DNA of 38,058 nucleotides from Saccoglossus kowalevskii (taxonomy: Eukaryota > Hemichordata > Enteropneusta > Harrimaniidae): NCBI RefSeq assembly GCF_000003605.2, contig NW_003110772.1:1-38058 (forward strand), in the 5' to 3' direction. The notes beneath the pieces are model-generated. The model made no database searches, was not told where the DNA came from, and saw nothing but the letters and a program-made list of their open reading frames with translations. Within the stretch, counting starts at the first letter, position 1. Every line of letters begins with the position of its first letter. This document shows, piece after piece, positions 5,006-26,671 of the stretch. The position numbers and the translations under genes were made by a program.

Positions 5006-5940
5006 GTCTCCCATGCAAGTACTAACCACGCCCGATTGCACTTTACTTTAAACATTCGCCGGTGACCTAACCACAAAGGTGCATGGATTATTTGAAATTA
5101 AGCCGACTTGGCGGCTATTTCATGTTTTTGGATGTTTTGAAATCGATATCGCTGGCATTGGTACATTCTAGAATTGACCTATGACCTCTACGAGCTTGGA
5201 GTAACACTACGGTAATTTAACAGCTTTTTCAGAAATATTTATTCATATTTTCGAACTTTTAACTATGGGATTTGTTAATATGATATCACAGGTAAAAATC
5301 ACGAATGAAACTACCAACTTTGCAATCGCTTTTTGCAACTTTGTATGTAGTTTGTTGTCGATTTTTCAGTTGGCTGTTGTCATATTCTGCTAATATATGA
5401 GGCATTATCGATACATTTACTTAATGTTTTCGAAATTTAACTGTGGTGTTGTCATGACAATGACTTAGGTTAAATATAAAAGTAACTCCGCCAACATTTC
5501 TTTCGTTTTCCCAAACTTTGCACACTTTTTTCTAACATTTTACACACAGCTCATGTGAACATCTATAGGCTGCTTTCAACTAATTTTTATTAAATTTGTC
5601 GACTTTACAACTGCGCGTTTCTATATGCCAACTATTTAGGTCATATATACAAATACATCTACCAACTTTGCAATAACTTTGTACAACTTTGCATTCACTT
5701 TGAACAACTTCGCACGGTGTGTTAACTGTTCAAAACCCACTACGTGCCGACGGCATGAACAACTTGTCCTTGAAAAGGAATTAAAACACATTGCATTAAT
5801 TAAAATAGTTACAAAAATTCTACGATTTTTCACTATAAATGATTGACATCACTGTAAAAAAGAATGCAAGATCGTTGTTTTATATGTTTTATAGATGTGT
5901 GATGAAACAAAAAATAATTGAACAGGTCGTTTTTCAGGGA
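5006..5940. repeat. Satellite monomer M6 (A-to-B junction, 935 bp)
   Basis: Box at 4999-5050 (CGATTGCACTT, intermediate between families). The left third is almost identical to M5; by 5,370 it reads GTCATATTC and the tail has CTTCGCACGG and AACTGTTCAAAACC, which are family-B marks. The A-to-B switch therefore lies inside this monomer, about 5,260 to 5,375. Confidence 0.96.
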
Positions 5941-6882
5941 GTCTCCCATGCAAGAAATAACACGCCCGATTGCACTTTACTTTAAACATTCGTCGGTACC
6001 TAACCACAAAGCTGCATGGATTATTTGAAATTAAGCCGAATTGGCTGCTATTACATGTTTTCAGAACTTTTAAATCGATATCGCTGGCACAAATACCTTC
6101 TAGAATTGACCGATGACCTCTACAAGCTTGGAGTAACACTACGGTAATTTAACAGCTTTTTCAGAAATATTTATTCATATTTTCGAACTTTTAACTATGG
6201 GATTTGTTAATATGATATCGCAGGTAAATATCACGAATGAAACTACCAACTTTGCAATCGCTTTTTGCAACTTTGTATGTAGTTTGTTGTCGATTTTTCA
6301 GTTGGCTGTTGTCATATTCTGCTAATATATGAGGCATTATCGATACATTTACTTAATGTTTTCGAAATTTAACTGTGGTGTTGTCATGACAATGACTTAG
6401 GTTAAATATAAAAGTAACTCCGCCAACATTTCTTTCGTTTTCCCAAACTTTGCACACTTTTTTCTAACATTTTACACTCAGCTCATGTGAACATCTATAG
6501 GCTGCTTTCAACTAACTTTTATTTAATTTGTCGACTTTACAACTGCGCGTTTCTATATGCCAACTACTTAGGTCATATATACAAATACATCTACCAACTT
6601 TGCAATAACTTTGTACAACTTTGCATTCACTTTGAACATCTTTGCACGGTGTGTTAACAGCTTAAAACCCAATACGTGCCGACGGCATGAACAACTTGTC
6701 CTTGAAAATTAGAAGGAATTAAAACACTTTTCATTAATAAAAATAGTTACAAAAATTCTACGATTTTTCACTATAAATGATTGACATCACTGTAAAAAAG
6801 AATGTAGGATCGTTGTTTTATATGTTTTATAGATATGTGATGAAACAAAAAAAATAAATTCAACAGGTCGTTTAATCAGGGA
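5941..6882. repeat. Satellite monomer M7 (family B, 942 bp)
   Basis: Box at about 5934-5985 is damaged (GCAAGAAATAACACGCCC). At 6,050-6,115 it carries the alternative tract ATTACATG, TTTTCAGAAC, CACAAATACC, TGACCGATGACC that appears together only in M19 and M24. Confidence 0.96.
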
Positions 6883-7827
6883 GTCTCCCATGCAAGAACT
6901 AACCACGCCCGATTTCACTTTACTTTAAATATTCGTCGTTGACCTAACCACAAAGCTGCATGAATTATTTGAAATTAAGCCGAATTGGCGGCTATTTAAT
7001 GTTTTTGGATGTTTTAAAATCGATATCGCTGGCACAGGTACATTCTAGAATTGACCTATGACCTCTACAAGCTTGGAGTATCACTACGGTAATTTAACAG
7101 CTTTTTCAGAAATATTTATTCATATTTTCGAACTTTTAACTATGGGACTTGTTAATATGATATCACAGGTAAAAATCACGAATTAAACTACCAACTTTGC
7201 AATCGTATTTCGCAACTTTGTATGTAGTTTGTTGTCGATTTTTCAGAGGGCTGTTGTCATATTCTGCTAACATATGAGGCATTATCGATACATTTACTTA
7301 ATGTTTTCGAAATTTAACTGCGGGGTTGTCATGACAATGACTTAGGTTAAATACAAAAGCAACTCCGCCAACATTTCTTTCGTTTTCCCAAACGTTGCAC
7401 ACTTTTTTCTAACATTTTACACTCACCTCATGTGAACATCTATAGGCTGCTTTCAACTAACTTTTATTTAATTTGTCGACTTTACAACTGCGCGTTTCTA
7501 TATGCCAACTACTTAGGTCATATATACAAATACATCTACCAACTTTGCAATAACTTTGTACAACTTTGCATTCACTTTGAACATCTTTGCACGGTGTGTT
7601 AACAGCTTAAAACCCAATACGTGCCGACGGCATGAACAACTTGTCCTTGAAAATTAGAAGGAATTAAAACACTTTTCATTAATAAAAATAGTTACAAAAA
7701 ATCTACGACTTTTCACTATAAATGATTGACATCACTGTAAAAAAGAATGTAGGATCGTTGTTTTATATGTTTTATAGATATGTGATGAAACAAAAAAAAT
7801 AAATTCAAAAGGTCGTTTAATCAGTGA
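6883..7827. repeat. Satellite monomer M8 (family B, 945 bp)
   Basis: Box at 6876-6927 is family B (GCAAGAACTAACC, CGATTTCACTT). AACGTTGCAC, CACGAATTAAAC and CTAACATATGAGG recur exactly 1,890 bp later in M10. Private bases: TCAGAGGGCTG and TAAATATTCG. Confidence 0.97.
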
Positions 7828-8772
7828 GTCTCCCATGCAAGTACTAACCACGCCCGATTTCACTTTACTTTAAACATTCGTCGTTGACCTAACCACAAAG
7901 CTGCATGAATTATTTGAAATTAAGCCGAATTGGCGGCTATTTAATGTTTTTGGATGTTTTAAAATCGATATCGCTGGCACAGGTACATTCTAGAATTGAC
8001 CTATGACCTTTACAAGCTTGGAGTATCACTACGGTAATTTAACAGCTTTTTCAGAAATATTTATTCATATTTTCGAACTTTTAACTATGGGATTTGTTAA
8101 TATGATATCACAGGTAAAAATCACGAATGAAACTACCAACTTTGCAATCGCTTTTTGCAACTTTGTATGTAGTTTGTTGTCGATTTTTCAGTTGGCTGTT
8201 GTCATATTCTGCTAATATATGAGGCATTATCGATACATTTACTTAATGTTTTCGAAATTTAACTGTGGTGTTGTCATGACAATGACTTAGGTTAAATATA
8301 AAAGTAACTCCGCCAACATTTCTTTCATTTTCCCAAACTTTGCACACTTTTTTCTAACATTTTACACTCAGCTCATGTGAACATCTATAGGCTGCTTTCA
8401 ACTAACGTTTATTTAATTTGTCGACTTTACAACTGCGCGTTTCTATATGCCAACTACTTAGGTAATATATACAAATACATCTACAAACTTTGCAATAACT
8501 TTGTACAACTTTGCATTCACTTTGAACAACTTCGCACGGTGTGTTAACAGCTTAAAACCCACTACGTGCCGACGGCATGAACAACTTATGCTTGAAAATT
8601 AGAAGGAATTAAAACACTTTTCATTAATTACAATAGTTACAAAAATTCTACGATTTTACACTATAAATGATTGACATCACTGTAAAAAAGAATGTAGGAT
8701 CGTTGTTTTATATGTTTTATAGATATGTGATGAAACAAAAAAAATAAATTCAACAGGTCGTTTAATCAGGGA
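7828..8772. repeat. Satellite monomer M9 (family B, 945 bp)
   Basis: Box at 7821-7872 combines the intact C-box bases (GTACTAACC) with the altered A-box (GATTTCAC), preceded by CAGTGAG. GACCTTTACAAG is shared with M11, 1,890 bp to the right. The tail has TAGGTAATATAT and ACTTATGCTTG, not seen elsewhere. Confidence 0.97.
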
Positions 8773-9717
8773 GTCTCCCATGCAAGAACTAACCACGCCC
8801 GATTTCACTTTACTTTAAACATTCGTCGTTGACCTAACCACAAAGCTGCATGAATTATTTGAAATTAAGCCGAATTGGCGGCTATTTAATGTTTTTGGAT
8901 GTTTTAAAATCGATATCGCTGGCACAGGTACATTATAGAATTGACCTATGACCTCTACAAGCTTGGAGTATCAAAACGGTAATTTAACAGCTTTTTCAGA
9001 AATATTTATTCATATTTTCGAACTTTCAACTATGGGACTTGTTCATATGATATCACAGGTAAAAATCACGAATTAAACTACCAACTTTGCAATCGTATTT
9101 TGCAACTTTGTATGTAGTTTGTTGTCGATTTTTCAGTTGGCTGTTGTCATATTCTGCTAACATATGAGGCATTATCGATACATTTACTTAATGTTTTCGA
9201 AATTTAACTGCGGGGTTGTCATGACAATGACTTAGGTTAAATACAAAAGCAACTCCGCCAACATTTCTTTCGTTTTCCCAAACGTTGCACACTTTTTTCT
9301 AACATTTTACACTCACCTCATGTGAACATCTATAGGCTGCTTTCAACTAACTTTTATTTAATTTGTCGACTTTACAACTGCGCGTTTCTATATGCCAACT
9401 ACTTAGGTCATATATACAAATACATCTACCAACTTTGCAATAACTTTGTACAACTTTGCATTCACTTTGAACATCTTTGCACGGTGTGTTAACAGCTTAA
9501 AACCCAATACGTGCCGACGGCATGAACAACTTGTCCTTGAAAATTAGAAGGAATTAAAACACTTTTCATTAATAAAAATAGTTACAAAAATTCTACGATT
9601 TTTCACTATAAATGATTGACATCACTGTAAAAAAGAATGTAGGATCGTTGTTTTATATGTTTTATAGATATGTGATGAAACAAAAAAAATAAATTCAAAA
9701 GGTCGTTTAATCAGTGA
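8773..9717. repeat. Satellite monomer M10 (family B, 945 bp)
   Basis: Box at 8766-8817, family B. Near copy of M8; differences include CATTATAGAA, TATCAAAACGG, TTTCAACTATGG and TTGTTCATATG, all private to M10. Confidence 0.97.
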
Positions 9718-10659
9718 GTCTCCCATGCAAGTACTAACCACGCCCGATTTCACTTTACTTTAAACATTCGTCGTTGACCTAACCACAAAGCTGCATGAAT
9801 TATTTGAAGTTAAGCCGAATTGGCGGCTATTTAATGTTTTTGGATGTTTTAAAATCGATATCGCTGGCACAGGTACATTCTAGAATTGACCTATGACCTT
9901 TACAAGCTTGGAGTATCACTACGGTAATTTAACAGCTTTTTCAGAAATATTTATTCATATTTTCGAACTTTTAACTATGGGATTTGTTAATATGATATCA
10001 CAGGTAAAAATCACGAATGAAACTACCAACTTTGCAATCGCTTTTTGCAACTTTGTATGTAGTTTGTTGTCGATTTTTCAGTTGGCTGTTGTCATATTCT
10101 GCTAATATATGAGGCATTATCGATACATTTACTTAATGTTTTCGAAATTTAACTGTGGTGTTGTCATGACAATGACTTAGGTTAAATATAAAAGTAACTC
10201 CGCCAACATTTCTTTCGTTTTCCCAAACTTTGCACACTTTTTTCTAACATTTTACACTCAGCTCATGTGAACATCTATAGGCAGCTTTCAACTAACGTTT
10301 ATTTAATTTGTCGACTTTACAACTGCGCGTTTCTATATGCCAACTACTTAGGTCATATATACAAATACATCTACCAACTTTGCAATAACTTTGTACAACT
10401 TTGCATTCACTTTGAACATCTTTGCACGGTGTGTTAACAGCTTAAAACCCACTAAGTGCCGACGGCATGAACAACTTGTCCTTGAAAATTGGAAGGAATT
10501 AAAACACTTTTTCTTAATTAAAATAGTTACAAAAATTCTACGATTTTTCACTATAAATGATTGACATCACTGTAAAAAAGAATGCAGGATCGTTGTTTTA
10601 TATGTTTTATAGATGTTTGATGAAACAAAAGAAAATTCAACAGGTCGTTTATTCAGTGA
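9718..10659. repeat. Satellite monomer M11 (family B to A, 942 bp)
   Basis: Box at 9711-9762, same hybrid type as M9. Near copy of M9 up to about 10,350 (differences TTGAAGTTAAG, TAGGCAGCTTT). Beyond that the tail has TTTGCACGG and GCAGGATCG, and the array returns to family A before the M12 box. Confidence 0.97.
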
Positions 10660-11605
10660 GTCTCCCATGCAAGTACTAACCACGCCCAATTGCGCTTTAC
10701 TTTAAACATTCGTCGGTGACCTAACCACAAAGCTGAATGGATTATTTGAAATTAAGCCGAATTGGCGGCTAATTCATGTTTTTGGATGTTTTAAAATCGA
10801 TATCGCTGGCACAGGTACATTGTAGAATTGACCTATGACCTCTACAAGCTTGGAGTAAAACCACGGTAATTTAACAGCTTTTTCAGAAATATTTATTCAT
10901 ATTTTCGAACATTTAATTATGGGACTTGTTAATATGATATCACAGGTAAAAATCACGAATGAAACTACCAACTTTGCAATCACTTTTTGCAACTTTGTAT
11001 GTAGTTTGTTGTCGATTTTTCAGTTGGCTGTTGTGATATTCTGCTTATATATGAGGCATTATCGATACATTTACTTAATGTTTTCGAAATTTAACTGCGG
11101 GGTTGTCATGACAATGACTTAGCTTAAATATAAAAGCAACTCCGCCAACATTTCGTTCGTTTTCCCTAAAATTTGCACACTTGTTTCTAACATTTTACAC
11201 TCACCTCATGAGAACATCTATAGGCTGCTTTCAACTAACTTTTATTTAATATTTCGACTATACAACTGCGCGTTTCTATATGCCAACTACTTAGGTCATA
11301 TATACAAATACATCTACCAACATTGCAATAACTTTGTACAACTTTGCATTCACTTTGAACATCTGTGCACGGTGTGTTAACAGCTTAAAACCCACTACGT
11401 GCCGACAGCATGAACAACTTGTCCTTGGAAATTATTAGGAATTAAAAGACTTTTCAATAATTAAAATAGTTACAAGAATTCTACGATTTTTCATTATAAA
11501 TGATTGACATCACTGTAAAAAAGAATGCAGGATCGTTTTTTATATGTTTTATAGATGTGTGATGAAACAAAAAAAAATACATACAACAGGTCGTTTATTC
11601 AGGGA
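10660..11605. repeat. Satellite monomer M12 (family A, 946 bp)
   Basis: Box at 10653-10704 reads CGCCCAATTGCG after CAGTGAG, both shared with M40. GTAAAACCACGG is private. CATTTCGTTCG with CCCTAAAATTTGC matches the right half of M4. The tail (GACAGCATG, AAATTATTAGG, TTCAATAATT) is repeated in M13. Confidence 0.97.
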
Positions 11606-12549
11606 GTCTCCCATGCAATTACTAACCACGCCCGATTGCGCTTTACTTTAAACATTCGTAGATGACCTAACCACAAAGCCGCATGGCTGATGTGAAATTA
11701 AGCCGAATTGGCGGCTATTTCATGTTTTTTGGATGTTTTAAAATCGATATCGCTGGCACAGGTACATTCTAGAATTGACCTATGACCTCGACAAGCTTGG
11801 AGTAACACTACGGAAGTTTAACAGCTTTTTCAGAAATATTTATTCATATTTTCGAACTTTTAACTATGGGACTTGTTAATATGATATCACAGGTAAAAAT
11901 CACAAATAAAACTACCAACTTTGCAATCGCTTTTTGCAACTTTGTATGTAGTTTGTTGTCGATTTTTCAGTTGGCTGTTGTGATATTCTGCTAATATATG
12001 AGGCATTATAGATACATTTACTTAATGTTTTCGAAATTTAACTGGGGGGTTGTCATGACAATGACTTAGGTTAAATATAAAAGCAACTCCGTCAACATTT
12101 CTTTCGTTTTCTCAAACTTTGCACACTTTTTTCTAACATTTTACACTCAGCTCATGTGAACATCTATAGGCTGCTTTCAACTAACTTTTATTTAATATGT
12201 CGACCATACAACTGCGCGTTTTTATATGCCAACTACTTAGGTCATATATACAAATACATCTACAAACTTTGCAATAACTTTGTACAACTTTGCATTCAAT
12301 TTGAACAACTTTGCACGGTGTGTTAACAGCTTAAAACCCACTACGTGCCGACAGCATGAACAACTTGTCCTTGGAAATTATTAGGAATTAAAAGACTTTT
12401 CAATAATTAAAATAGTTACAAGAATTCTACGATTTTTCATTATAAATGATTGACATCACTGTAAAAAAGAATGCAGGATCGTTTTTTATATGTTTTATAG
12501 ATGTGTGATGAAACAAAAAAAATAAATTCAACAGTCGTTTATTCAGGGA
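11606..12549. repeat. Satellite monomer M13 (family A, 944 bp)
   Basis: Box at 11599-11650 reads CAATTACTAACC. From about 11,570 to 12,088 it repeats M4's rare-variant string; after that it diverges (CCGTCAACATTTC, TTTTCTCAAAC). The tail is nearly the same as M12's. Confidence 0.97.
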
Positions 12550-13496
12550 GTCTCCCATGCAATTACTAACCACGCCCGATTGCGCTTTACTTTAAACATT
12601 CGTAGATGACCTAACCACAAAGCCGCATGGCTGATGTGAAATTAAGCCGAATTGGCGGCTATTTCATGTTTTTTGATGTTTTAAAATCGATATCGCTGGC
12701 ACAGGTACATTCTAGAATTGACCTATGACCTCTACAAGCTTGGAGTAACACTACGGAAATTTAACAGCTTTTTCAGAAATATTTATTCATATTTTCGAAC
12801 TTTTATCTATGGGACTTGTTAATATGATATCACAGGTAAAAATCACGAATGAAACTACCAACTTTGCAATCGCTTTTTGCAACTTTGTATGTAGTTTGTT
12901 GTCGATTTTTCAGTTGGCTGTTGTGATATTCTGCTAATATATGACGCATTATCGATACATTTACTTAATGTTTTCGAAATTTAACTGGGGGGTTGTCATG
13001 ACAATGACTTAGGTTAAATATAAAAGCAACTCCGCCAACATTTCTTTCATTTTCTCAAAAACTTTGCACACTTTTTTCTAACATCTTACACGCAGCTCAT
13101 GTGAACATCTATAGGCTGCTTTCAACTAACTTTTATTTAATATGTCGACCATACAACTGCGCGTTTTTATATGCCAACTACTTAGGTCATATATACAAAT
13201 ACATCTACAAACTTTGCAATAACTTTGTACAACTTTGCATTCACTTTGAACAACTTTGCACGGTGTGTTAACAGCTTAAAACCCACTACGTGCCGACGGC
13301 ATGAACAACTTGTCCTTGGAAATTATTAGGAATTAAAACACTTTTCATTAATTAAAATAGTTACAAGAATTCTACGATTTTCTACTATAAATGATTGACA
13401 TCACTGTAAAAAAGAATGCAGGATCGTTTTTTTATATGTTTTATAGATGAGTGATGAAACAAACAAAAAAAATTCAACAGGTCGTTTAATCAGGGA
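12550..13496. repeat. Satellite monomer M14 (family A, 947 bp)
   Basis: Box at 12543-12594 reads CAATTACTAACC with AGCCGCATGGCTGATG, continuing the M13 type, but CCTCTACAAG is back to consensus. Private: ATATGACGCATT, TCAAAAACTTTGC, TCTTACACGCAG. Confidence 0.97.
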
Positions 13497-14432
13497 GTCT
13501 CCCATGCAAGAACTAACCACGCCCGATTGCGCTTTACTTTAAACATTCGTAGATGACCAAACCACAAAGCTGCATGGATTTTTTGAAATTAAGCCGAATT
13601 GGCGGATATTTCATGTTTTTGGATGTTTTAAAATCGACATTGCTGGCACAGGTACATTCTAGAATTGACATATGACCTCTACAAGCTTGGAGTAACACTA
13701 CGGAAATTTAACAGCTTTTTCAGAAATATTTATTCATATTTTCGAACTTTTAACTATGGGACTTGTTATTATGATATCACAGGTAAAAATCACGAATGAA
13801 ACTTTGCAATCGCTTTTTGCAACTTTGTATGTAGTTTGTTGTCGATTTTTCAGTTGGCTGTTGTGATATTCTGCTAATATATGATGCATTATCGATACAT
13901 TTACTTAATGTTTTCGAAATTTAACTGGGGGTTGTCATGACAATGACTTAGGTTAAATATAAAAGCAACTCCGCCAACATTTCTTTCGTTTTCCCAAACT
14001 TTGCACACTTTTTTTATCATTTTACACTCAGCTCATGTGAACATCTATAGGCTGCTTTCAACTAACTTTTATTTAATTCGTCGACTTTACAACTGCGCGT
14101 TTCTATATGCCAACTACTTAGGTCATATATACAAATACATCTACCAACTTTGCAAAAACTTTGTACAACTTTGCATTCACTTTGAACAACTTTGCACGGT
14201 GTGCTACCAGCTTAAAACCCACTACGTGCCGACGGCATGAACAACTTGTTCTTGAAAATTAGAAGGAATTAAAACACTTTTCATTAATTAAAATAGTTAC
14301 AAAAATTCTACGATTTTTCACTATAAATGATTGACATCACTGTAAAAAAGAATGCAGCATCATTGTTTTATATGTTTTATAGGTGTGTGATGAAACAAAC
14401 AAAATAAATTCAACAAGTCGTTTATTCAGGGA
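13497..14432. repeat. Satellite monomer M15 (family A, 936 bp)
   Basis: Box at 13490-13541 has the family-B C-box base (GAACTAACC) but the family-A A-box (GATTGCGC). At about 13,798 GAAACTTTGCAATCG lacks eight bases present elsewhere (GAAACTACCAACTTTGC), a deletion between short AACT repeats. DR1 is altered (TGACATATGACC). Confidence 0.97.
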
Positions 14433-15367
14433 GTCTCCCATGCAAGTGCTAACCACGCCCGATTGCGCTTTATTTTAACATTCGTCGGTGACCTAACCAC
14501 AAAGCAGCATGGATTATTTGAAATTAAGCCGAATTGGCGGCTATTTCATGTTTTTGGATGTTTTAAAATCGATATCGCTGGCACAGGTACATTCTAGAAT
14601 TGACCTATGACCTCTACAAGCTTGGAGTAACACTACGGTAATTTAACAGCTTTTTCAGACATATTTATTCATATTTTCGAACTTTTAACTATGGAACTTG
14701 TTAATATGATATCACATGTAAAAATCACGAATGAAACTACCAACTTTGCTATCACTTTTTTCACTTTGTAGTTTGTTGTCGATTTTCAGTTGCTGTTGTG
14801 ATATTCTGCTAATACATGAGCCATTATCGATACATTTACTAATGTTTTCGAAATTTAACTGGGGTTGTCATGACAATGACTTAGGTTAAATATAAAAGCA
14901 ACTCCGCCAACATTTCTTTCGTTTTCCCAAACTTTGCACACTTTTTTCTAACATTTTTCACTCAGCTAATGAGAACATCTATAGGCTGCTTTCAACTAAC
15001 TTTTATTTAATTTGTCTATTTTAAAACTGCGCGTTTCTATATGCCAACTACTTAGGTCATATATACAAATACATCTACCAACTTTGCAATAACTTTGTAC
15101 AACTTTGCATTCACTTTGAACAACTTTGCACGGTGTGTTAACAGCTTAAAACCCACGACGTGCCGACGGCATGAACAACTTGTCCTTGAAAATTAGAAGG
15201 AATTAAAACACTTTTCATTAATTAAAATAGTTACAAAAATTCCACGATTTTTCACTATAGATGATTGACATCACTGTAAAAAAGAATGCCGGGTCGTTGT
15301 TTTATATATTTTATGGGTGTGTGATGAAACAAAAAAAAATAAATTCAACAGGTCGTTTATTCAGGGA
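14433..15367. repeat. Satellite monomer M16 (family A, 935 bp)
   Basis: Box at 14426-14477 reads GTGCTAACC. A cluster of small deletions lies at about 14,745-14,870 (ACTTTTTTCACTTTG, GATTTTCAGTTGCTG, TTTACTAATG). TTTGTCTATTTTAAAAC and CCCACGACGTG in the tail match M37's tail. Confidence 0.97.
15331..15339 (-). terminator. T-run downstream of the 5S-like box (possible Pol III terminator)
   Basis: Nine A on the plus strand, hence T9 on the minus strand, about 22 nt past the recognisable 5S match and therefore near where 5S transcripts end. Equivalent tracts (often 6 to 12 A) precede nearly every box, e.g. 34,190s and 32,300s; a few are interrupted (near 250, 14,398 and 37,015). RNA polymerase III terminates at runs of four or more T. 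A simple A-tract could also be a slippage-prone microsatellite with no function. Confidence 0.4.
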
Positions 15368-15412
15368 GTCTCCCATGCAAGTACTAACCACGCCCGATTG
15401 CGCTTTACTTTA
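15340..15412 (-). pseudogene. 5S rRNA-derived segment, best-preserved (family A) form
   Basis: Read on the minus strand, 15412 to 15361 gives AAAGTAAAGCGCAATCGGGC, then GTGGTTAGTACTTGCATGGG, then AGACTCCCTGA. By eye this matches animal 5S rRNA from about nucleotide 47 to 97 at roughly 39 of 50 positions, and about 32 of 36 across the C-box part. Weaker similarity continues to the 5S 3' end: CTGTTGAATTT (minus strand, ending at 15340) against CTGTAGGCTTT, followed by a T9 run at the expected end of a 5S gene. The 5' third of 5S (about nt 1-46) is not recognisable. TFIIIA-type internal control elements in 5S are the A-box, intermediate element and C-box; here the C-box core is intact and the A-box core is GTAAAGC instead of GCTAAGC. 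It cannot encode a working 5S rRNA. Whether it is transcribed is unknown. The equivalent interval is present in all 41 monomers; its coordinates are given in each monomer entry. Confidence 0.85.
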
Positions 15413-16308
15413 AACATTCGTCGGTGACCTAACCACAAAGCTGCATGGATGATTTGAAATTAAACCGAATTGGCGGCTATTTCATGTTTTTGGATGTTTT
15501 AAAATCGCTATCGCTAGCACAGGTACATTCTTGAATTGACCTATGACCTCTACCAGCTTGGAGTAACACTACGGAAATTTACCAGCTTTTTCAGAAATAT
15601 TTATTCATATTTTCGATCTTTTTACTATGGGACTTGTTAATATGATATCACAGGTAAAAATCACGAATGAAAGTCCCAACTTTGCAATCGCTTTTTGCAA
15701 CTTTGTATGTAGTTTGTTGTCAATTTTTCAGTTGGCTGTTGTGATATTCTGCTTATATATGAGGCATTATCGATACATTTACTTAATGTTTTCGAACTTT
15801 AACTGCGGGGTTGTCTAGGCAATGACTTAGGTTAAATATAAAAGCAACTCCGCCAACATTTCTTTCGTTTTCCCAAACTTTGCTCACTTTTTTCCAACAT
15901 TATTCAGCTCATGTGAACATCTATAGGCTGCTTTCAACAAACTTTTATTTAATTTGTCGACTTTACAACTGCGTTTTTCGATATGCCAACTACTTAGGTC
16001 ATATATACAAATACATCTACCAACTTTGCAATAACTTTGTACAACTTTGCATTCACTTTGAACAGCTTTGCACGGTGTGTTAACAGCTTAAAATCCACTA
16101 CGTGACGACAGCATGAACAACTTGTCCTTCAAAATTAGAAGCAATTAAAACACATTTCATTAATTGAAATAGTTACAAAAATTCTACGATTTTTCACTAT
16201 AGATGATTGACATCACTGTAAAAAAGAATGCAGGATCGTTGTTTTATATATTTTATGGGTGTGTGATGAAACAAAAAAAATAAATTCAACAGGTCGTTTT
16301 TTCATGGA
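15368..16308. repeat. Satellite monomer M17 (family A, 941 bp)
   Basis: Box at 15361-15412 has the family-A consensus throughout. CTCTACCAGCTTGG, TTTTCGATC, GAAAGTCCC and TTGTCAATTTTTC are shared with M37, 20 monomers away. The palindrome position reads TTGTCTAGGCAA (15811-15822). The tail has a shortened CCAACATTATTCAGC, shared with M33. Confidence 0.97.
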
Positions 16309-17252
16309 GTGTCCCATGCAAGTACTAACCACGCCCGATTGCGCTTCACTTTAAACATTCGTCGGTGACCTAACCATAAAGCTGCATGGATTATTTGAAA
16401 TTAAGCCGAATTGGCGCTAGTTCATGTTTTTGGTTGTTTTAAAATCGATATCGCTGGCACAGGTACATTCTAGAATTAAACTATGACCTCTACAAGCTTG
16501 GAGTAACACTTCGGAAATTTACCAGCTTTTTCAGAAATATTTATTCATATTTCCGAACTTTTAACTATGGGACTTGTTAATATGATATCACAGATAAAAA
16601 TCACGAATGAAACTACCAACTTTGCAATCGCTTTTTGCAACTTTGTATGTAGTTTGTTGTCGATTTTTCAGTTGGTTGTTGTGATATTCTGCTAGTATAT
16701 GAGGCATTATCGATACATTTACTTAATGTTTTCGAAATTTAACTGCGAGGGTGTCATGACAATGACTTAGGTAAATATAAAAGCAACTCCGCCGACATTT
16801 CATTCCTTTTTCTCAAACTTTGCACACTTTTTCTAACATTTTACACTCAGCTCATGTGAACATCTATAGGCTGCTTTCAACTAACTTTTATTTAATTTGT
16901 CGACTTTACAACTGCGCGTTTCTATATGCCAACTACTTAGGTCATATATATACAAATACATCTACCAACTTTGCAATAACTTTGTACAACTTTGCATTCA
17001 CTTTGAACAACTTCGCACGGTGTGTTAACAGCTTAAAACCCACTACGTGCCGACGGCATGAACAACTTGTACTTGAAAATTAGAAGGAATTAAAACACTT
17101 TTCATTAATTAAAATAGTTACAAAAATTCTACGATTTTACAGTATAAATGATTGACATCACTTTAAAAAAGAATGCAGGATCGTTGTTTTATATGTTTTA
17201 TAGATGTGTGATGAAACAAAAAAATAAATTCAACAGGTCGTTTAATCAGGGA
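16309..17252. repeat. Satellite monomer M18 (A-to-B junction, 944 bp)
   Basis: Box at 16302-16353 reads GTGTCCCATG. It is the sister of M1 (GGCGCTAGTTC, TTCCGAAC). Mid-monomer is family A (GTGATATTC at about 16,680); by 17,010 it has CTTCGCACGG and then TTGTACTTG and GATTTTACAG, so the switch to family B lies between. Confidence 0.96.
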
Positions 17253-18191
17253 GTCTCCCATGCAAGAACTAACCACGCCCGATTTCACTTTAGTTTAAAC
17301 ATTCGTCGTTGACCTAACAACAAGACTGCATGAATTATTTGAAATTAAGCCGAATTGGCGGCTATTACATGTTTTCAGAACTTTTAAATCGATATCGCTG
17401 GCACAAATACCTTCTAGAATTGACCGATGACCTCTACAAGCTTGGAGTAACACTACGGTAATTTAACAGCTTTTTCAGAAATATTTATTCATATTTTCGA
17501 ACTTTTAACTATGGGACTTGTTAATATGATATCACAGGTAAAAATCACGAATTAAACTACCAACTTTGCAATCGTATTTTGCAACTTTGTATGTAGTTTG
17601 TTGTCGATTTTTCAGTTGGCTGTTGTCATATTCTGCTAATATATGAGGCATTACCGATACATTTACTTAATGTTTTCGAAATTTAACTGCGGGGTTGTCA
17701 TGACAATGACTTAGGTTAAATATAAAAGCAACTCCGCCAACATTTCTTTCGTTTTCCCAAACTTTGCGCACTTTTTTCTAACATTTTACACTCAGCTCAT
17801 GTGAACATCTATAGGCTGCTTTCAACTAACTTTTATTTAATTTGTCGACATTACAACTGCGCGTTTCTATATGCCAACTACTTAGGTCATATATACAAAT
17901 ACATCTACCAACTTTGCAATAACTTTGTACAACTTGCATTCACTTTGAACAACTTCGCACGGTGTGTTAACAGCTAAAACCCACTACGTGCCGACGGCAT
18001 GAACAAATTGTACTTGAAAATTAGAAGGAATTAAAACACTTTGCATTATTTAAAATAGTTACAAAATTTCTACGATTTTACAGTATAAATGATTGACATC
18101 ACTGTAAAAAAGAATGCAGGATCGTTGTTTTATGTTTTATAGATGTGTGATGAAACAAAAAAATAAATTCAACAGGTCGTTTAATCAGGGA
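17253..18191. repeat. Satellite monomer M19 (family B, 939 bp)
   Basis: Box at 17246-17297 (GAACTAACC, GATTTCACTTTAG). Carries the CAGAACTTTTAAATCG / CACAAATACC tract at about 17,366-17,433 shared with M7 and M24. Small losses in the tail (CAACTTGCATTC, AACAGCTAAAAC). Confidence 0.97.
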
Positions 18192-18236
18192 GTCTCCCAT
18201 GCAAGAACTAACCACGCCCGATTTCACTTTACTTTA
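18185..18236 (-). pseudogene. 5S rRNA-derived segment, degraded (family B) form
   Basis: The same box as in family A but with three consistent changes on the minus strand: GTTAGTTCTTG instead of GTTAGTACTTG in the C-box, and GTGAAATC instead of GCGCAATC beside the A-box. This form (GAACTAACC with GATTTCAC on the plus strand) occurs in M8, M10, M19-M21, M30 and M31, with further loss of the GGGC in M22, M25, M26 (CGAACG) and M27-M29, M32 (CGACCG). These changes hit bases that are nearly invariant in 5S genes, so this form looks less able to bind TFIIIA than family A. Confidence 0.8.
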
Positions 18237-19136
18237 AACATTCGTCGTTGACCTAACCACAAAGCTGCATGAATTATTTGAAATTAAGCCGAATTGGCGG
18301 CTATTTAATGTTTTTGGATGTTTTAAAATCGATATCGCTGGCACAGGTACATTCTAGAATTGACATATGACCTCTACAAGCTTGGAGTATCACTACGGTA
18401 ATTTAACAGCTTTTTCAGAAATATTTATTCATATTTTCGAACTTTTAACTATGGGACTTGTTAATATGATATCACAGGTAAAAATCACGAATTAAACTAC
18501 CAACTTTGCAATCGTATTTTGCAACTTTGTATGTAGTTTGTTGTCGATTTTTCAGTTGGCTGTTGTCATATTCTGCTAATATATGAGGCATTATCGATAC
18601 ATTTACTTAATGTTTTCGAAATTTAACTGCGGGGTTGACATGACAATGACTTAGGTTAAATATAAAAGCAACTCCGCCAACATTTCTTTCGTTTTCCCAA
18701 ACATTGCACACTTTTTTCTAACATTGTACACTCAGCTCATGTGAACATCTATAGGCTGCTTTCAACTAACTTTTATTTAATTTGTCGACTTTACAACTGC
18801 GCGTTTCTATATGCCAACTACTTAGTTCATATATACAAATACATCTACCAACTTTGCAATAACTTTGTACAACTTTGCATTCACTTTGAACAACTTCGCA
18901 CGGTGTGTTAACAGCTTAAAACCCACTACGTGCCAATGGCATGAACAAATTGTACTTGAAAATTAGAAGGAATTAAAACACTTTTCATTAATTAAAATAG
19001 TTACAAAAATTCTACGATTTTACACTATAAATGATTGACATCACTGTAAAAAAGAATGCAGGATCGTTGTTTTATATGTTTTATAGATATGTGATGAAAC
19101 AAAAAAAATAAATACAGCAGATCGTTTAATCAGGGA
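18192..19136. repeat. Satellite monomer M20 (family B, 945 bp)
   Basis: Box at 18185-18236, family-B consensus. DR1 altered (TGACATATGACC); palindrome broken (TTGACATGACAA). The tail has GTGCCAATGGC, shared with the M29 tail. Confidence 0.97.
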
Positions 19137-20080
19137 GTCTCCCATGCAAGAACTAACCACGCCCGATTTCACTTTACTTTAAAGATTCGTCGTTGACCTA
19201 ACCACAAAGCTGCATGGATTATTTGAAATTAAGCCGAATTGGCGGCTATTTCATGTTTTTGGATGTTTTAAAATCGATATCGCTGGCACAGGTACATTCT
19301 TGAATTGACCTATGACCTCTACAAGCTTGGAGTATCACTACGGTAATTTAACAGCTTTTTCAGAAATATTTATTCATATTTTCGAACTTTTAACTATGGG
19401 ACTTGTTAATATGATATCACAGGTAAAAATCACGAATTAAACTACCAACTTTGCAATCGTATTTTGCAACTTTGTATGTAGTTTGTTGTCGATTTTTCAG
19501 TTGGCTGTTGTCATATTCTGCTAATATATGAGGCATTATCGATACATTTACTTAATGTTTTCGAAATTTAACTGTGGTGTTGTCATGACAATGACTTAGG
19601 TTAAATATAAAAGTAACTCCGCCAACATTTCTTTCGTTTTCCCAAACTTTGCACACTTTTTTCTAACATTTTACACTCAGCTCATGTGAACATCTATAGG
19701 CTGCTTTCAACTAACTTTTATTTAATTTGTCGACTTTACAACTGCGCGTTTCTATATGCCAACTACTTAGGTCATATATACAAATACATCTACCAACTTT
19801 GCAATAACTTTGTACAACATTGCATTCACTTTGAACAACTTCGCACGGTGTGTTAACAGCTTAAAACCCACTACGTGCCGACGGCATGAACAACTTGTAC
19901 TTGAAAATTAGAAGGAATTAAAACACTTTTCATTAATTACAATAGTTACAAAAATTCTACGATTTTACACTATAAATGTTTGACATCACTGTAAAAAAGA
20001 ATGCAGGATCGTTGTTTTATATGTTTTATAGATGTGTGATGAAACAAAAAAATAAATTCAACAGGTCGTTTAATCAGGGA
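19137..20080. repeat. Satellite monomer M21 (family B, 944 bp)
   Basis: Box at 19130-19181, family B. Private AATACAGCAGATCG before the box and AAAGATTCG after it; CATTCTTGAATTG is shared with M17 and M37. The palindrome is intact. Confidence 0.97.
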
Positions 20081-21024
20081 GTCTCCCATGCAAGAACTAA
20101 CCACGAACGATTTCACTTTACTTTAAACATTCGTCGGTGACCTAACCACAAAGCTGCATGGATTATTTGAAATTAAGCCGAATTGGCGGCTGTTTTATGT
20201 TTTTGGATGTTTTAAAATCGATATCGCTGGCACAGGTACATTCTAGAATTGACCTATGACCTCTACAAGCTTGGAGTAACACTACGGTAATTTAACAGCT
20301 TTTTCAGAAATATTTATTCATATTTTCGAACTTTTAACTATGGGACTTGTTAATATGATATCACAGGTAAAAATCACGAATGAAACTACCAACTTTGCAA
20401 TCGCTTTTTGCAACTTTGTATGTAGTTTGTTGTCGATTTTTCAGTTGGCTGTTGTCATATTCTGCTAATATATGAGGCATTATCGATACATTTACTTAAT
20501 GTTTTCGAAATTTAACTGTGGTGTTGTCAGGACAATGACTTAGGTTAAATATAAAAGTAACTCCGCCAACATTTCTTTCGTTTTCCCAAACATTACACAC
20601 TTTTTTCTAACATTTTACACTCAGCTCATGTGAACATCTGTAGGCTGCTTTCAACTAACTTTTATTTAATTTGTCGACTTTACAACTGCGCCTTTCTATA
20701 TGCCAACTACTTAGGTCATATATACAAATACATCTACCAACTTTGCAATAACTGTGTACAACTTTGCATTCACTTTGAACAACTTCGCACGGTGTGTTAA
20801 CAGCTTAAAACCCACTACGTGCCGACGGCATGAACAACTTGTACTTGAAAATTAGAAGGAATTAAAACACTTTTAATTAATTAAAATAGTTACAAAAAAT
20901 CTACGATTTTTCACTATAAATGATTGACATCACTGTAAAAAAGAATGCAGGATGGCTGTTTTATATGTTTTATAGATATGTGATGAAACAAAAAAATAAA
21001 TTCAACAGGTCGTTTAATCAGGGA
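20081..21024. repeat. Satellite monomer M22 (family B, 944 bp)
   Basis: Box at 20074-20125 reads CCACGAACGATTTC, losing the 5S GGGC. GGCGGCTGTTTTATG is shared with M25 to M29 and M32. Palindrome broken (TTGTCAGGACAA). Three-monomer offset to the near copy M25. Confidence 0.97.
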
Positions 21025-21966
21025 GTCTCCCATGCAAGAACTAACCACGCCCGAATTCACTTTACTTTAAACATTCGTCGTTGACCTAACCACAAAGCTG
21101 CATGTATTATTTGAAATTAAGCCGAATTGGCGGCTATTTCATGTTTTTGGATGTTTTAAAATCGATATCGCTGGCACAGGTACATTCTAGAATTGACCTA
21201 TGACCTCTACAAGCTTGGAGTATCACTACGGTAATTTAACAGCTTTTTCAGAAATATTTATTCTTATTTTCGAACTTTTAACTATGGGACTTGTTAATAT
21301 GATATCACAGGTAAAAATCACGAATGAAACTACCAACTTTGCAATCGTATTTTGCAACTTTGTATGTAGTTTGTTGTCAATTTTTCAGTTGGCTGTTGTC
21401 ATATTCTGCTAATATATGAGGCATTATCGATACATTTACTTAATGTTTTCGAAATTTAACTGCGGGGTTGTCATGACAATGACTTAGGTTAAATATAAAA
21501 GCAACTCCGCCAACATTTCTTTCGTTTTCCCAGACTTTGACACTTTTTTCTAACATTTTACACTCAGCTCATGTGAACATCTATAGGCTGCTTTCAACTA
21601 ACTTTTATTTAATTTGTCGACTTTACAACTGCGCGTTTCTATATGCCAACTACTTAGGTCATATATACAAATACATCTACCAACTTTGCAATAACTTTGT
21701 ACAACTTTGCATTCACTTTGAACAACTTCGCACGGTGTGTTAACTGCTCAAAACCCACTACGTGCTGACGGCATGAACAACTTGTACTTGAAAATTCGAA
21801 GGAATTAAAACACTTTTCATTAATTACAATAGTTACAAAAATTCTACGATTTTACACTATAAATGATTGACATCACTGTAAAAAAGAATGCAGGATCGTT
21901 GTTTTATATGTTTTATAGATGTGTGATGAAACAAAAAATAAATTGAACAGGTCTTTTATTCAGGGA
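21025..21966. repeat. Satellite monomer M23 (family B, 942 bp)
   Basis: Box at 21018-21069 reads CCCGAATTCAC. Private GCATGTATTATT and CCAGACTTTGACAC. The tail AACTGCTCAAAACC with GTGCTGACGG is shared with the tail of M32. Confidence 0.97.
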
Positions 21967-22910
21967 GTCTCCCATGCAAGAAATAAACCACGCCCGATTG
22001 CACTTTACTTTAAACATTCGTCGGTAACCTAACCACAAAGCTGCATGGATTATTTGAAATTAAGCCGAATTGGCGGCTATTACATGTTTTCAGAACTTTT
22101 AAATCGATATCGCTGGCACAAATACCTTCTAGAATTGACCGATGACCTCTACAAGCTTGGAGTAACACTACGGTAATTAAACAGCTTTTTCAGAAATATT
22201 TATTCATATTTTCGAACTTTTAACTATGGGACTTGTTAATATGATATCACAGGTAAAAATCACGAATTAAACTACCAACTTTGCAATCGTATTTTGCAAC
22301 TTTGTATGTAGTTTGTTGTCGATTTTTCAGTTGGCTGTTGTCATATTCTGCTAATATATGAGGCATTATCGATACATTTATTTAATGTTTTCGAAATTTA
22401 ACTGCGGGGTTGTCATGACAATGACTTAGGTTAAATATAAAAGCAACTCCGCCAACATTTCTTTCGTTTTCCCAAACTTTGCGCACTTTTTTCTAACATT
22501 TTACACTCAGCTCATGTGAACATCTATAGGCTGCTTTCAACTTACTTTTATTTAATTTGTCGACTTTACAACTGCGCCTTTCTATATGCCAACTACTTAG
22601 GTCATATATACAAATACATCTACCAACTTTGCAATAACTTTGTACAACTTTGCATTCACTTTGAACAACTTCGCACGGTGTGTTAACAGCTTAAAACCCA
22701 CTACGTGCCGACGGCATGAACAACTTGTACTTGAAAATTAGAAGGAATTAAAACACTTTTCATTAATTACAATAGTTACAAAAATTCTACGATTTTACAC
22801 TATAAATGATTGACATCACTGTAAAAAAGAATGCAGGATCGTTGTTTTATATGTTTTATAGATGTGTGATGAAACAAAAAAATAAATTCAACAGGTCGTT
22901 TAATCAGGGA
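21967..22910. repeat. Satellite monomer M24 (family B, 944 bp)
   Basis: Box at about 21960-22011 reads GCAAGAAATAAACCACG, the same type as M7. It carries the CAGAACTTTTAAATCG tract at about 22,080-22,148. It is the third holder of this tract after M7 and M19. Confidence 0.97.
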
Positions 22911-23839
22911 GTCTCCCATGCAAGAACTAACCACGAACGATTTCACTTTACTTTAAACATTCGTCGGTGACCTAACCACAAAGCTGCATGGATTATTTGA
23001 AATTAAGCCGAATTGGCGGCTGTTTTATGTTTTTGGATGTTTTAAAATCGATATCGCTGGCACAGGTACATTCTAGAATTGACCTATGTCCTCTACAAGC
23101 TTGGAGTAACACTACGGTAATTTAACAGCTTTTTCAGAAATATTTATTCATATTTTCGAACTTTTAACTATGGGACTTGTTAATATGATATCACAGGTAA
23201 AAATCACGAATGAAACTACCAACTTTGCAATCGCTTTTTGCAACTTTGTATGTAGTTTGTTGTCGAATTTTCAGTTGGCTGTTGTCATATTCTGCTAATA
23301 TATGAGGCATTATCGATACATTTACTTAATGTTTTCGAAATTTAACTGTGGTGTTGTCATGACAATGACTTAGGTTAAATATAAAAGTAACTCCGCCAAC
23401 ATTTCTTTCGTTTTCCCAAACTTTGCACACTTTACACACAGCTCATGTGAACATCTATAGGCTGCTTTCAACTAACTTTTATTTAATTTGTCGACTTTAC
23501 AACTGCGCGTTTCTATATGCCAACTACTTAGGTCATATATACAAATACATCTACCAACTTTGCAATAACTTTGTACAAATTTGCATTCACTTTGAACAAC
23601 TTCGCACGGTGTGTTAACAGCTTAAAACCCACTACGTGCCGACGGCATGAACAACTTGTACTTGAAAATTAGAAGAATTAAAACACTTTTCATTAATTAA
23701 AATAGTTACAAAATTCTACGATTTTACAGTATAAATGATTGACATCACTGTAAAAAAGAATGCAGGATCGTTGTTTTATATGTTTTATAGATGTGTGATG
23801 AAACAAAAAAATAAATTCAACAGGTCGTTTAATCAGGGA
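22911..23839. repeat. Satellite monomer M25 (family B, 929 bp, shortest)
   Basis: Box at 22904-22955 reads CCACGAACG. At about 23,425 CACACTTTACACACAG lacks about 13 bases (TTTTTCTAACATT in neighbours), a deletion between similar ACTTT and TTTAC stretches. DR1 altered (TATGTCC). Confidence 0.97.
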
Positions 23840-24783
23840 GTCTCCCATGCAAGAACTAACCACGAACGATTTCACTTTACTTTAAACATTCGTCGGTGAC
23901 CTAACCACAAAGCTGCATGGATTATTTGAAATTAAGCCGAATTGGCGGCTGTTTTATGTTTTTGGATGTTTTAAAATCGATATCGCTGGCACAGGTACAT
24001 TCTAGAATTGACCTATGACCTCTACAAGCTTGGAGTAACATTACGGTAATTTAACAGCTTTTTCAGAAATATTTATTCATATTTTCGAACTTTTAACTAT
24101 GGGAATTGTTAATATGATATCACAGGTAAAAATCACGAATGAAACTACCAACTTTGCAATCGCTTTTTGCAACTTTGTATGTAGTTTGTTGTCGATTTTT
24201 CAGTTGGCTGTTGTCATATTCTGCTAATATATGAGGCATTATCGATACATTTACTTAATGTTTTCGAAATTTAACTGCGGGGTTGTCATGACAATGACTT
24301 AGGTTAAATATAAAAGTAACTCCGCCAACATTTCTTTCGTTTTCCCAAACATTGCACACTTTTTTCTAACATTTTACACTCAGCTCATGTGAACATCTAT
24401 AGGCTGCTTTCAACTAACTTTTATTTAATTTGTCGACTTTACAACTACGCCTTTCTATATGCCAACTACTTAGGTCATATATACAAATACATCTACCAAC
24501 TTTGCAATAACTTTGTACAACTTTGCATTCACTTTGAACAACTTCGCACGGTGTGTTAACAGCTTAAAACCCACTACGTGCCGACGGCATGAACAACTTG
24601 TACTTGAAAATTAGAAGGAATTAAAACACTTTTCATTAATTACAATAGTTACAAAAATTCTACGATTTTACACTATAAATGATTGACATCACTGTAAAAA
24701 AGAATGCAGGATCGTTGTTTTATATGTTTTATAGATGTGTGATGAAACAAAAAAATAAATTCAACAGGTCGTTTAATCAGGGA
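23840..24783. repeat. Satellite monomer M26 (family B, 944 bp)
   Basis: Box at 23833-23884 reads CCACGAACG. GGGAATTGTT is shared with M37 only; ACAACTACGCC is private here. The preceding tail has single-base losses (AGAAGAATTAAAAC). Confidence 0.97.
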
Positions 24784-26414
24784 GTCTCCCATGCAAGAAC
24801 TAACCACGACCGATTTCACTTTACTTTAAACATTCGTCGGTGACCTAACCACAAAGCTGCATGGATTATTTGAAATTAAGCCGAATTGGCGGCTGTTTTA
24901 TGTTTTTGGATGTTTTAAAATCGATATCGCTGACACAGGTACATTCTAGAATTGACCTATGACCTCTACAAGCTTGGAGTAACACTTCGGTAATTTAACA
25001 GCTTTTTCAGAAATATTTATTCATATTTTCGAACTTTTAACTATGGGATTTGTTAATATGATATCACAGATAAAAATCACGAATGAAACTACCAACTTTG
25101 CAATCGCTTTTTGCAACTTTGTATGTAGTTTGTTGTCGATTTTTCAGTTGGCTGTTGTCATATTCTGCTAATATATGAGGCATTATCGATACATTTACTT
25201 AATGTTTTCGAAATTTAACTGCGGTGTTGTCATGACAATGACTTAGGTTAAATATAAAAGTAACTCCGCCAACATTTCTTTCGTTTTCCCAAACATTGCA
25301 CACTTTTTTCTAACATTTTACACTCAGCTCATGTGAACATCTGTAGGCTGCTTTCAACTAACTTTTATTTAATTTGTCGACTTTACAACTGCGCCTTTCT
25401 AAATGCGAATTACTTAGGTCATATATACAAATACATCTACCAACTTTGCAATAACTTTGTACAACTTTGCATTCACTTTGAACAACTTCGCACGGTGTGT
25501 TAACAGCTTAAAACCCACTACGTGCCGACGGCATGAACAACTTGTACTTGAAAATTAGAAGGAATTAAAACACTTTTCATTAATTACAATAGTTACAAAA
25601 ATTCTACGATTTTACACTATAAATGATTGACATCACTGTAAAAAAGAATGCAGGATCGTTGTTTTATATGTTTTATAGATGTGTGATGAAACAAAAAAAT
25701 AAATTCAACAGGTCGTTTAATCAGGGAGTCTCCCATGCAAGAACTAACCACGACCGATTTCACTTTACTTTAAACATTTGTCGGTGACCTAACCACAAAG
25801 CTGCATGGATTATTTGAAATTAAGCCGAATTGGCGGCTGTTTTATGTTTTTGGATGTTTTAAAATCGATATCGCTGACACAGGTACATTCTAGAATTGAC
25901 CTATGACCTCTACAAGCTTGGAGTAACACTTCGGTAATTTAACAGCTTTTTCAGAAATATTTATTCATATTTTCGAACTTTTAACTATGGGATTTGTTAA
26001 TATGATATCACAGATAAAAATCACGAATGAAACTACCAACTTTGCAATCGCTTTTTGCAACTTTGTATGTAGTTTGTTGTCGATTTTTCAGTTGGCTGTT
26101 GTCATATTCTGCTAATATATGAGGCATTATCGATACATTTACTTAATGTTTTCGAAATTTAACTGCGGTGTTGTCATGACAATGACTTAGGTTAAATATA
26201 AAAGTAACTCCGCCAACATTTCTTTCGTTTTCCCCAACATTGCACACTTTTTTCTAACATTTTACACTCAGCTCATGTGAACATCTGTAGGCTGCTTTCA
26301 ACTAACTTTTATTTAATTTGTCGACTTTACAACTGCGCCTTTCTAAATGCGAACTACTTAGGTCATATATACAAATACATCTACCAACTTTGCAATAACT
26401 TTGTACAACTTTGC
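24530..26414. repeat. Very recent single-monomer duplication (M27/M28, 944 bp)
   Basis: M27 and M28 share at least five variants found nowhere else as a set and differ at only about three visible positions. M26 and M29 on either side lack the set, so one monomer was duplicated in place by unequal exchange. Confidence 0.9.
24784..25727. repeat. Satellite monomer M27 (family B, 944 bp)
   Basis: Box at 24777-24828 reads CCACGACCG. CGCTGACACAGG, ACACTTCGG, CACAGATAAAAATC, CATCTGTAGG and TCTAAATGCGAA all recur in M28, which differs at only a handful of positions. Confidence 0.97.
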
Positions 26415-26671
26415 ATTCACTTTGAACAACTTCGCACGGTGTGTTAACAGCTTAAAACCCACTACGTGCCGACGGCATGAACAACTTGTACTTGAAAATT
26501 AGAAGGAATTAAAACACTTTTCATTAATTACAATAGTTACAAAAATTCTACGATTTTACACTATAAATGATTGACATCACTGTAAAAAAGAATGCAGGAT
26601 CGTTGTTTTATATGTTTTATAGATGTGTGATGAAACAAAAAAATAAATTCAACAGGTCGTTTAATCAGGGA
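25728..26671. repeat. Satellite monomer M28 (family B, 944 bp)
   Basis: Box at 25721-25772. Near-identical copy of M27. Differences I can see: ACATTTGTCGG for ACATTCGTCGG, TCCCCAACATTG for TCCCAAACATTG, GCGAACTACTT for GCGAATTACTT. Confidence 0.97.

What the first reader, a model, noticed from the sequence alone, without database searches (positions are those of the whole stretch)
15340..15412. A 943-bp satellite built around the 3' two thirds of a 5S rRNA gene
Seen: every monomer carries, on the minus strand, a segment whose core GGTTAGTACTTG, ATGGGAGAC and CGGGC follows the animal 5S order and spacing, up to a T-run at the expected 5S end. Known: 5S-derived satellites (PcP190 in frogs, 5SHindIII in the fish Hoplias) and 5S-derived SINE3 elements exist. 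Inference: this array descends from a 5S rDNA unit (gene plus spacer) whose gene lost its 5' part, or from a mobile 5S-headed element that was tandemly amplified. I do not recognise this monomer as a described family.
Basis: partly seen in the sequence, partly recalled or inferred. Interest (0 to 1): 0.75.

Follow-up and report, generated by a model that had tools for sequence, protein, structure and literature searches.

The report
Satellite DNA keeping a 5S promoter
This is a long tandem repeat in an animal-like genome that descends from a 5S ribosomal RNA gene; the RNA has decayed, but across several related repeat families the short stretch matching the gene's internal promoter has stayed nearly unchanged, which hints that the promoter mattered to the repeat's spread.

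Summary
The window is one whole 38-kb contig of a 572-Mb genome and consists of 40 complete ~943-bp monomers in tandem. All 41 units that reach the segment carry a 5S-derived stretch on the minus strand. In the consensus, 5S 62-91 is identical to this genome's own 5S gene. A covariance model of that 5S hits 33 of 41 units end to end, many weakly: a decayed near-full-length gene, not a clean 3' two thirds. The rest of the monomer matches neither functional 5S spacer type beyond chance; it contains three diverged ~174-bp subrepeats. Related families (728, ~920, ~506 bp) occur elsewhere in the genome. In a four-family alignment, 28 of 30 core columns are invariant; the best other window has 23. 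A T-run follows the relic in 25 of 28 units. Within arrays the core is not constrained. Best reading: a 5S-derived satellite superfamily that kept a 5S-type internal promoter and perhaps a terminator, probably because founders of new families had them. A second satellite (216 bp) keeps full-length 5S. New variant of a known kind.

The parts
1..38058 (.). Satellite array, 40 complete monomers plus two partial ones; the whole contig G000:C525
   Evidence: mean pairwise divergence 5.6%
15324..16265 (.). Representative monomer (942 bp)
15341..15461 (-). Decayed near-full-length 5S gene (own-genome covariance model 1-119, 17.4 bits, E 0.02 in this copy)
   Evidence: local match 15358-15397
15368..15410 (-). 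5S 49-91, the internal control region as far as kept; 15368-15397 (5S 62-91) is identical to the functional gene
15331..15339 (-). Run of nine T just after the 5S relic, at the place of a Pol III terminator
   Evidence: 25 of 28 units of several families have T>=5 there
15543..15716 (-). Diverged ~174-bp subrepeat C
15716..15890 (-). Diverged ~174-bp subrepeat B (holds the second-best conserved stretch of the 3-family comparison)
15890..16059 (-). Diverged ~174-bp subrepeat A, with most of a 21-bp CAACTTTGCA-type cluster (16021-16072)

Best explanation
The array belongs to a superfamily of satellites that began as a 5S rRNA gene of this lineage joined to unrelated spacer DNA. Shown: the gene has lost its RNA structure, while the part covering the 5S internal promoter (5S 49-91, above all 62-91) is the best conserved part between the families compared, and a T-run sits behind it. 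Inferred: founders of each new family were copies still able to bind TFIIIA/TFIIIC and be transcribed, or at least bound, by the Pol III machinery, and this helped them to be copied (for example as extrachromosomal circles that reinsert). Once an array exists, single copies decay freely. Also inferred: the unit grew by duplication of a ~174-bp piece, from one copy in a ~506-bp unit on C6 to three in the 943-bp units (loss is the other possible direction).
For: 5S descent. Superfamily: 728-bp family with the same architecture, ~920-bp family on C3196, a ~506-bp unit with one subrepeat. Four-family alignment: 28 of 30 invariant columns in the core against 23 for the best of 399 windows not overlapping it, mean 52% invariant. 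The test does not rest only on loci found by the core: with relatives found by a non-5S query, C4561 keeps 29/30, six C3196 units 28-30/30, L059 28/30 and L062 27/30 where the rest is 72-79% identical; in 6 of these 9 rows no other window is as good. T-run in 25 of 28 core-bearing units against 12 and 7% of background windows of the 943 and 728 consensus. The relic RNA folds no better than shuffles (162 of 200 fold at least as well; -22.2 against -49.3 kcal/mol for the functional gene), so what is kept looks like DNA-level promoter sequence. Solitary and short copies in large contigs fit reinsertion. Circles of 5S rDNA and of satellites are known in human cells (PMC3225859, abstract).
Against: Within arrays the core is not constrained: over 141 units its low-frequency variation is 1.5% against 1.3% overall, its total divergence 4.5% against 3.1%, and only 25 of 141 have the exact core. 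One unit of L045 not found by pattern has core 26/30, no better than its rest. Of 8 dispersed pieces found by non-5S sequence, 2 have deletions in the core, and the C2041 fragment lacks the 5S segment. In 3 of 6 C3196 rows 11-14 other windows do as well as the core. The 728-bp family and L044, L045, L047-L049 were first found by exact match to the core, which biases them. Box A region (5S 49-61) is only 4-10 of 13 identical to the functional gene. The 28 units of the T-run count were chosen by a recognisable core and include 10 of one array. No transcript, TFIIIA-binding or circle data exist here. Families are not phylogenetically independent.
Confidence: 0.5

Rival explanations
1. Plain satellite: a 5S pseudogene caught in a tandem duplication and amplified by unequal exchange, with no role for the promoter; the apparent conservation of the core reflects how relatives were found and a few lucky families.
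For: No constraint within arrays; core deletions in 2 of 8 dispersed pieces; several relatives were found by exact core match.
Against: Relatives found by a non-5S query still keep 27-30 of 30 in 9 of 9 rows (six of them from one contig) at 72-79% background, and in 6 of the 8 dispersed pieces; the T-run is kept too.
Confidence: 0.3
2. The repeat descends from a 5S-headed mobile element (SINE3-like, or a TRIM with 5S in its LTR such as Ajax) that was later tandemly amplified.
For: Promoter-only conservation is reported for HaSE3 (PMC3272025, passages) and for Ajax and lepidopteran SINE3 (PMC10886601, section 3.7). The non-subrepeat part is about 400 bp. A solitary 1,124-bp copy and a lone fragment exist.
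Against: Most relatives read are arrays; the solitary C4561 copy is longer than one unit (it starts a second one), as a piece of an array or circle would be; target-site-duplication candidates are not above shuffles (consensus: 8 bp, reached by 81 of 200; C4561: 7 bp, reached by 67 of 200); a T-run follows the relic at the gene-end position instead of a SINE body. PBS and PPT were not tested.
Confidence: 0.15
3. The core is kept identical by gene conversion or recombination with the many 5S and 5S-like copies of the genome, not by selection on promoter function.
For: First-look 5S candidates number 18217, 47 scored, and the core is shared by functional, 216-bp and 943-type repeats.
Against: The kept island is only 30-43 nt. 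Four families share a CAA at 5S 59-61 that neither donor type has, so tracts would have to stop at the island. That conversion usually needs longer identity is recalled, not tested.
Confidence: 0.15
4. Descent of a functional 5S rDNA unit, gene plus its own spacer.
For: Tandem units of similar size (943 against 1139 and 1579 bp), gene and T-run in place; a few hits run ~38 nt past the gene end.
Against: Beyond that T-rich stretch neither spacer type matches the monomer; flank tests are at chance.
Confidence: 0.1

Closest known systems
PcP190 satellite of hyloid frogs
   Same: Tandem satellite derived from 5S rDNA, with a conserved 5S-like region and a variable remainder (PMC4201667 and PMC11675491, passages)
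   Different: PcP190 is ~190 bp with a 120-bp 5S-like region; here the unit is ~943 bp and only ~43 nt of the 5S are well kept. The 216-bp repeat of this same genome is the closer match to PcP190. Sequences were not compared.
5SHindIII satellite of the fish Hoplias malabaricus (name from the finding and recalled)
   Same: 5S-derived satellite, structure less stable than functional 5S (PMC5437419, passages)
Ajax TRIMs of nemerteans and 5S-headed SINE3 such as HaSE3
   Same: Keep the 5S promoter boxes but not the 5S RNA (PMC10886601, sections read; PMC3272025, passages)
   Different: Those are dispersed mobile elements with LTRs or LINE-like tails; here arrays dominate and no target duplication was found.
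Meloidogyne satellites with a CENP-B box-like motif
   Same: Short motifs kept while satellites diverge to 32-64% identity (PMC3694981, abstract)
   Different: The kept motif here is a 5S promoter and not a CENP-B box.
5S rDNA of Tribolium freemani associated with a satellite
   Same: 5S genes, 5S pseudogenes and satellite DNA together (PMC11202950, passages)
   Different: There 32 of 113 copies are truncated and full-sized genes prevail; here no copy in the array reaches the Rfam cut-off.

Membership tests
5S-derived satellite DNA | Long head-to-tail arrays of a non-coding unit | tested here: met
   40 complete monomers in the window; C4284, C1669, C1321, C124 and the first 10 kb of C1592 are also pure arrays
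5S-derived satellite DNA | A segment homologous to the 5S gene in each unit | tested here: met
   41 of 41 units by local alignment; 33 of 41 by the own-genome covariance model
PcP190 | ~190-bp unit with a 120-bp 5S-like conserved region | tested here: not met
   Unit ~943 bp, well-kept part 5S 49-91
Functional 5S rDNA | Covariance score and fold of 5S rRNA | tested here: not met
   No RF00001 hit at gathering in the window; fold of one copy not above shuffles; functional units score up to 112.9 bits
Functional 5S rDNA | Spacer of the functional unit | tested here: not met
SINE3 (5S-headed SINE) | Dispersed single copies with target-site duplications and a LINE-like tail | tested here: inconclusive
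Ajax/Cassandra TRIM | LTRs, primer-binding site, polypurine tract | not tested
   No tRNA 3' ends of this genome were collected
Pol III type 1 promoter (5S ICR) | Box A, intermediate element and box C (Xenopus positions recalled: 50-64, 67-72, 80-97) | tested here: inconclusive
   62-91 kept 27-30/30 in the nine relics (26/30 in a tenth); box A region 4-10/13 and 92-106 6-10/15
Pol III type 1 promoter (5S ICR) | TFIIIA binding and transcription | not testable with these tools
   Needs RNA or binding data

The most novel reading that the evidence does not exclude
A satellite superfamily whose long-lived elements are a TFIIIA-type box (5S 62-91) and a Pol III terminator: the box would play for these arrays the part that the CENP-B box plays in alpha satellite, with Pol III/TFIIIA occupancy or transcription-coupled circle formation deciding which monomers found new arrays, so that 5S genes keep seeding new satellites (943, 728, ~920, ~506 and 216 bp) in one genome.
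Probability: 0.25. Interest if true: 0.8.

Novelty: new variant of a known kind. Interest (0 to 1): 0.55.

Why it matters
5S-derived satellites are known from frogs, fish and plants, but what decides which monomers are amplified is an open question for all satellites. Here several families of one genome diverged to 72-79% identity while one promoter-sized island stayed nearly unchanged, yet copies inside an array drift freely. That pattern separates selection on founders from selection on copies and is directly testable by TFIIIA or Pol III mapping and by circle sequencing. It also warns that box-C hits are no count of 5S genes: the exact 31-mer of the functional gene occurs 50 times, while two box-C patterns occur 1546 and 1153 times (the first also counts functional genes).

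Tried and rejected
Rejected: chance similarity; another RNA family (searches gave none); a tRNA; a protein-coding remnant (open frames of at most 100 aa in the two monomers examined; not searched against Pfam); descent of the whole functional unit; derivation of the 943-bp unit from the 216-bp spacer (an attractive eye match upstream, CCAATTC..AAT.TTCA, is reached by 307 of 3000 shuffles, the downstream flank by 2215 of 3000). An 11-bp insertion in the 5' half, first inferred, was dropped: an ungapped alignment fits the other families better. Higher-order repeats of whole monomers: no lag of 1-19 stands out. No relatives found in viral contigs (18, 19), phages (21) or genome contigs (23, 38); in plasmids one chance-level 33-base match (20). 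Naming the organism failed: only the place of COX1 was found.

Literature: seven searches of the held library; none of the listings I saw names this monomer or several satellites of one genome sharing only the 5S promoter. Ten papers were opened, in abstract, passages or sections only. Subscription papers are not held.

Full report
What is there. The window is the complete contig G000:C525 (38,058 bp) of a genome of 572,110,611 bases in 4830 contigs. It consists of tandem monomers from end to end: 40 complete ones of 929-949 bp plus two partial ones. Mean pairwise divergence is 5.6% (0.3-8.4), neighbours are slightly closer than distant copies, no higher-order period stands out, and CpG observed/expected is 1.07. 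Two sets of linked variants alternate in blocks: copies 19-32 are mostly one type and the ends mostly the other. The search with a 200-base piece had 2846 first-look candidates, of which 40 were scored. The contigs C4284, C1669, C1321, C124 and the first 10 kb of C1592 are pure arrays of the same monomer. The exact box pattern of this type occurs 1153 times in the genome. Since 80 of 141 sampled units carry it, about 2030 copies or 1.9 Mb would be a rough estimate, close relatives included.

The 5S relic. Local alignment of a recalled human 5S finds the segment in 41 of 41 units, well above the shuffles of the consensus. Rfam's general 5S model does not reach its threshold. The genome's own functional 5S, found on C3485, C2212 and C3801 in units of about 1139 and 1579 bp (47 scored of 18217 first-look candidates; the exact 31-mer occurs 50 times, all on these three contigs), explains more. 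Positions 62-91 are identical, 30 of 30, to the monomer consensus, including CTTGCATGG where the six recalled animal genes have other letters. The flanking parts of the gene are decayed but above chance when anchored on the core (4 and 3 of 2000 shuffles; unanchored local tests give 43 and 176 of 2000). A covariance model from two functional and four 216-type genes aligns end to end in 33 of 41 units, E 8e-5 to 0.97, ten at E<=0.01. The relic RNA does not fold better than shuffles. So it is a dead, nearly full-length 5S gene of this lineage, and not a clean 3' two thirds.

The remainder. Neither functional spacer type matches the monomer without the gene. A few hits to ~1139-bp units run about 38 nt past the gene end through T-rich sequence, but the flanks alone are at chance. 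Instead the monomer holds three diverged tandem subrepeats of about 174 bp (64-68% alike; E 3e-20 for the best pair) and about 400 bp of other sequence that includes the relic.

Relatives in the same genome. Patterns built to separate derived repeats from the functional gene led to (i) diverged copies inside other contigs: L044 on C6, where one ~506-bp unit has only one subrepeat; L045 with three units 83-85% identical to the consensus; L047-L049 at 82-89%; and (ii) a 728-bp family on C590 with the same architecture. L045 (from its position 101), L047-L049, L055 and L056 are satellite to the ends of what was fetched. C4561 is a solitary stretch of 1,124 bp, about 1.2 units; C6 is a short array of about 1.6 kb; C2041 is a lone 194-bp fragment. 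No target duplication at C4561 exceeds shuffles (7 bp, reached by 67 of 200).

Conservation. Against the functional 5S, nine relics (943 and 728 consensus, L044 twice, L045 twice, L047, L048, L049) keep 27-30 of 30 at 62-91, but 9-17 of 28 at 21-48, 4-10 of 13 at 49-61 and 6-10 of 15 at 92-106. That script found units by up to 7 mismatches in the 22-nt box and missed the first L045 unit, which has 26 of 30, its background level. In the set found without the core, C4561 has 29/30 and six C3196 units have 28-30/30. The eight dispersed pieces have 19, 29, 28, 18, 27, 27, 29 and 30 of 30; the 19 and the 18 are due to deletions. C2041 lacks the 5S segment. No other 30-nt window does as well in 6 of 9 rows found without the core and in 9 of all 12 rows. 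In the alignment of four families, 28 of 30 core columns are invariant; the best of 399 other windows has 23 and the mean is 52%. A T-run of at least 5 lies 15-60 nt behind the core in 25 of 28 core-bearing units (10 of them from one array), against 12 and 7% of background windows.

Against this stands the absence of constraint inside arrays: over 141 units the core varies as much as the rest or more. My reading joins both: the core mattered when a monomer founded a new array, and single copies are free afterwards. This is inference. Gene conversion with other 5S copies, or bias in a small set of families, are the main alternatives.

A second 5S-derived satellite. A box-C pattern occurs 1546 times, functional genes included. 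The places listed lie on six contigs, many 216 bp or multiples apart, with 118-bp steps. In two stretches read, the 216-bp unit is a full 5S of about 119 nt (85-91% identical to the functional gene) with a 97-bp spacer, and the 118-bp units lack its first 19 nt. It scores 76-99 bits in Rfam in the nine hits of L042, and its consensus folds at -43.0 against -49.3 kcal/mol. Position 7 and its partner differ from the functional gene by a G-C to T-A change in the four copies aligned. This is the PcP190-like member of the pair, and it could also be an expressed variant 5S.

Known relatives. 5S-derived satellites (PcP190; 5SHindIII), 5S-headed SINE3 and the 5S-containing TRIMs Cassandra and Ajax are the nearest kinds. 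Promoter-only conservation is reported for HaSE3 and Ajax. Short motifs kept among satellites of 32-64% identity are reported for Meloidogyne (abstract). I file this as a 5S-derived satellite, tested and met, and do not file it as SINE3, TRIM or PcP190.

Noticed in passing
L042 (C576:5001-7500) and L043 (C404:5001-6900): A 216-bp tandem repeat made of a full-length variant 5S (Rfam 76-99 bits in nine hits of L042) and a 97-bp spacer, interleaved with 118-bp units lacking the first 19 nt of the 5S; a compensatory G-C to T-A change in helix I suggests it may be, or recently was, an expressed 5S variant.
   Followed up: partly
L050 and L046 (C590): A 728-bp satellite family with the same plan as the 943-bp one, 60-69% identical to it in local alignments.
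   Followed up: yes
L054 (C4561) and L053 (C2041): Solitary copies of the satellite in large contigs, 1,124 bp (1.2 units) and a 194-bp fragment: the repeat disperses outside long arrays.
   Followed up: partly
window 15716-15890 on the minus strand (subrepeat B): A second stretch well conserved between families (around CTAAGTCATTGTCATGACAACCCCGCAGTT) contains the palindrome TTGTCATGACAA; no explanation.
   Followed up: no
C3485 against C2212 and C3801: Two kinds of functional 5S rDNA unit, about 1139 and 1579 bp, with the same gene but visibly different sequence next to it.
   Followed up: partly
window monomers 2, 35 and 38 (starts 1188, 32288, 35122): Nearly identical copies (1.2-1.8% apart), the first more than 30 kb from the others, while adjacent copies differ by 4.7% on average: long-range exchange or block duplication within the array.
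   Followed up: no
C4830:13523-14863: A COX1 gene with seven in-frame TGA and no other stop, as in mitochondria that read TGA as tryptophan; the organism was not identified.
   Followed up: no
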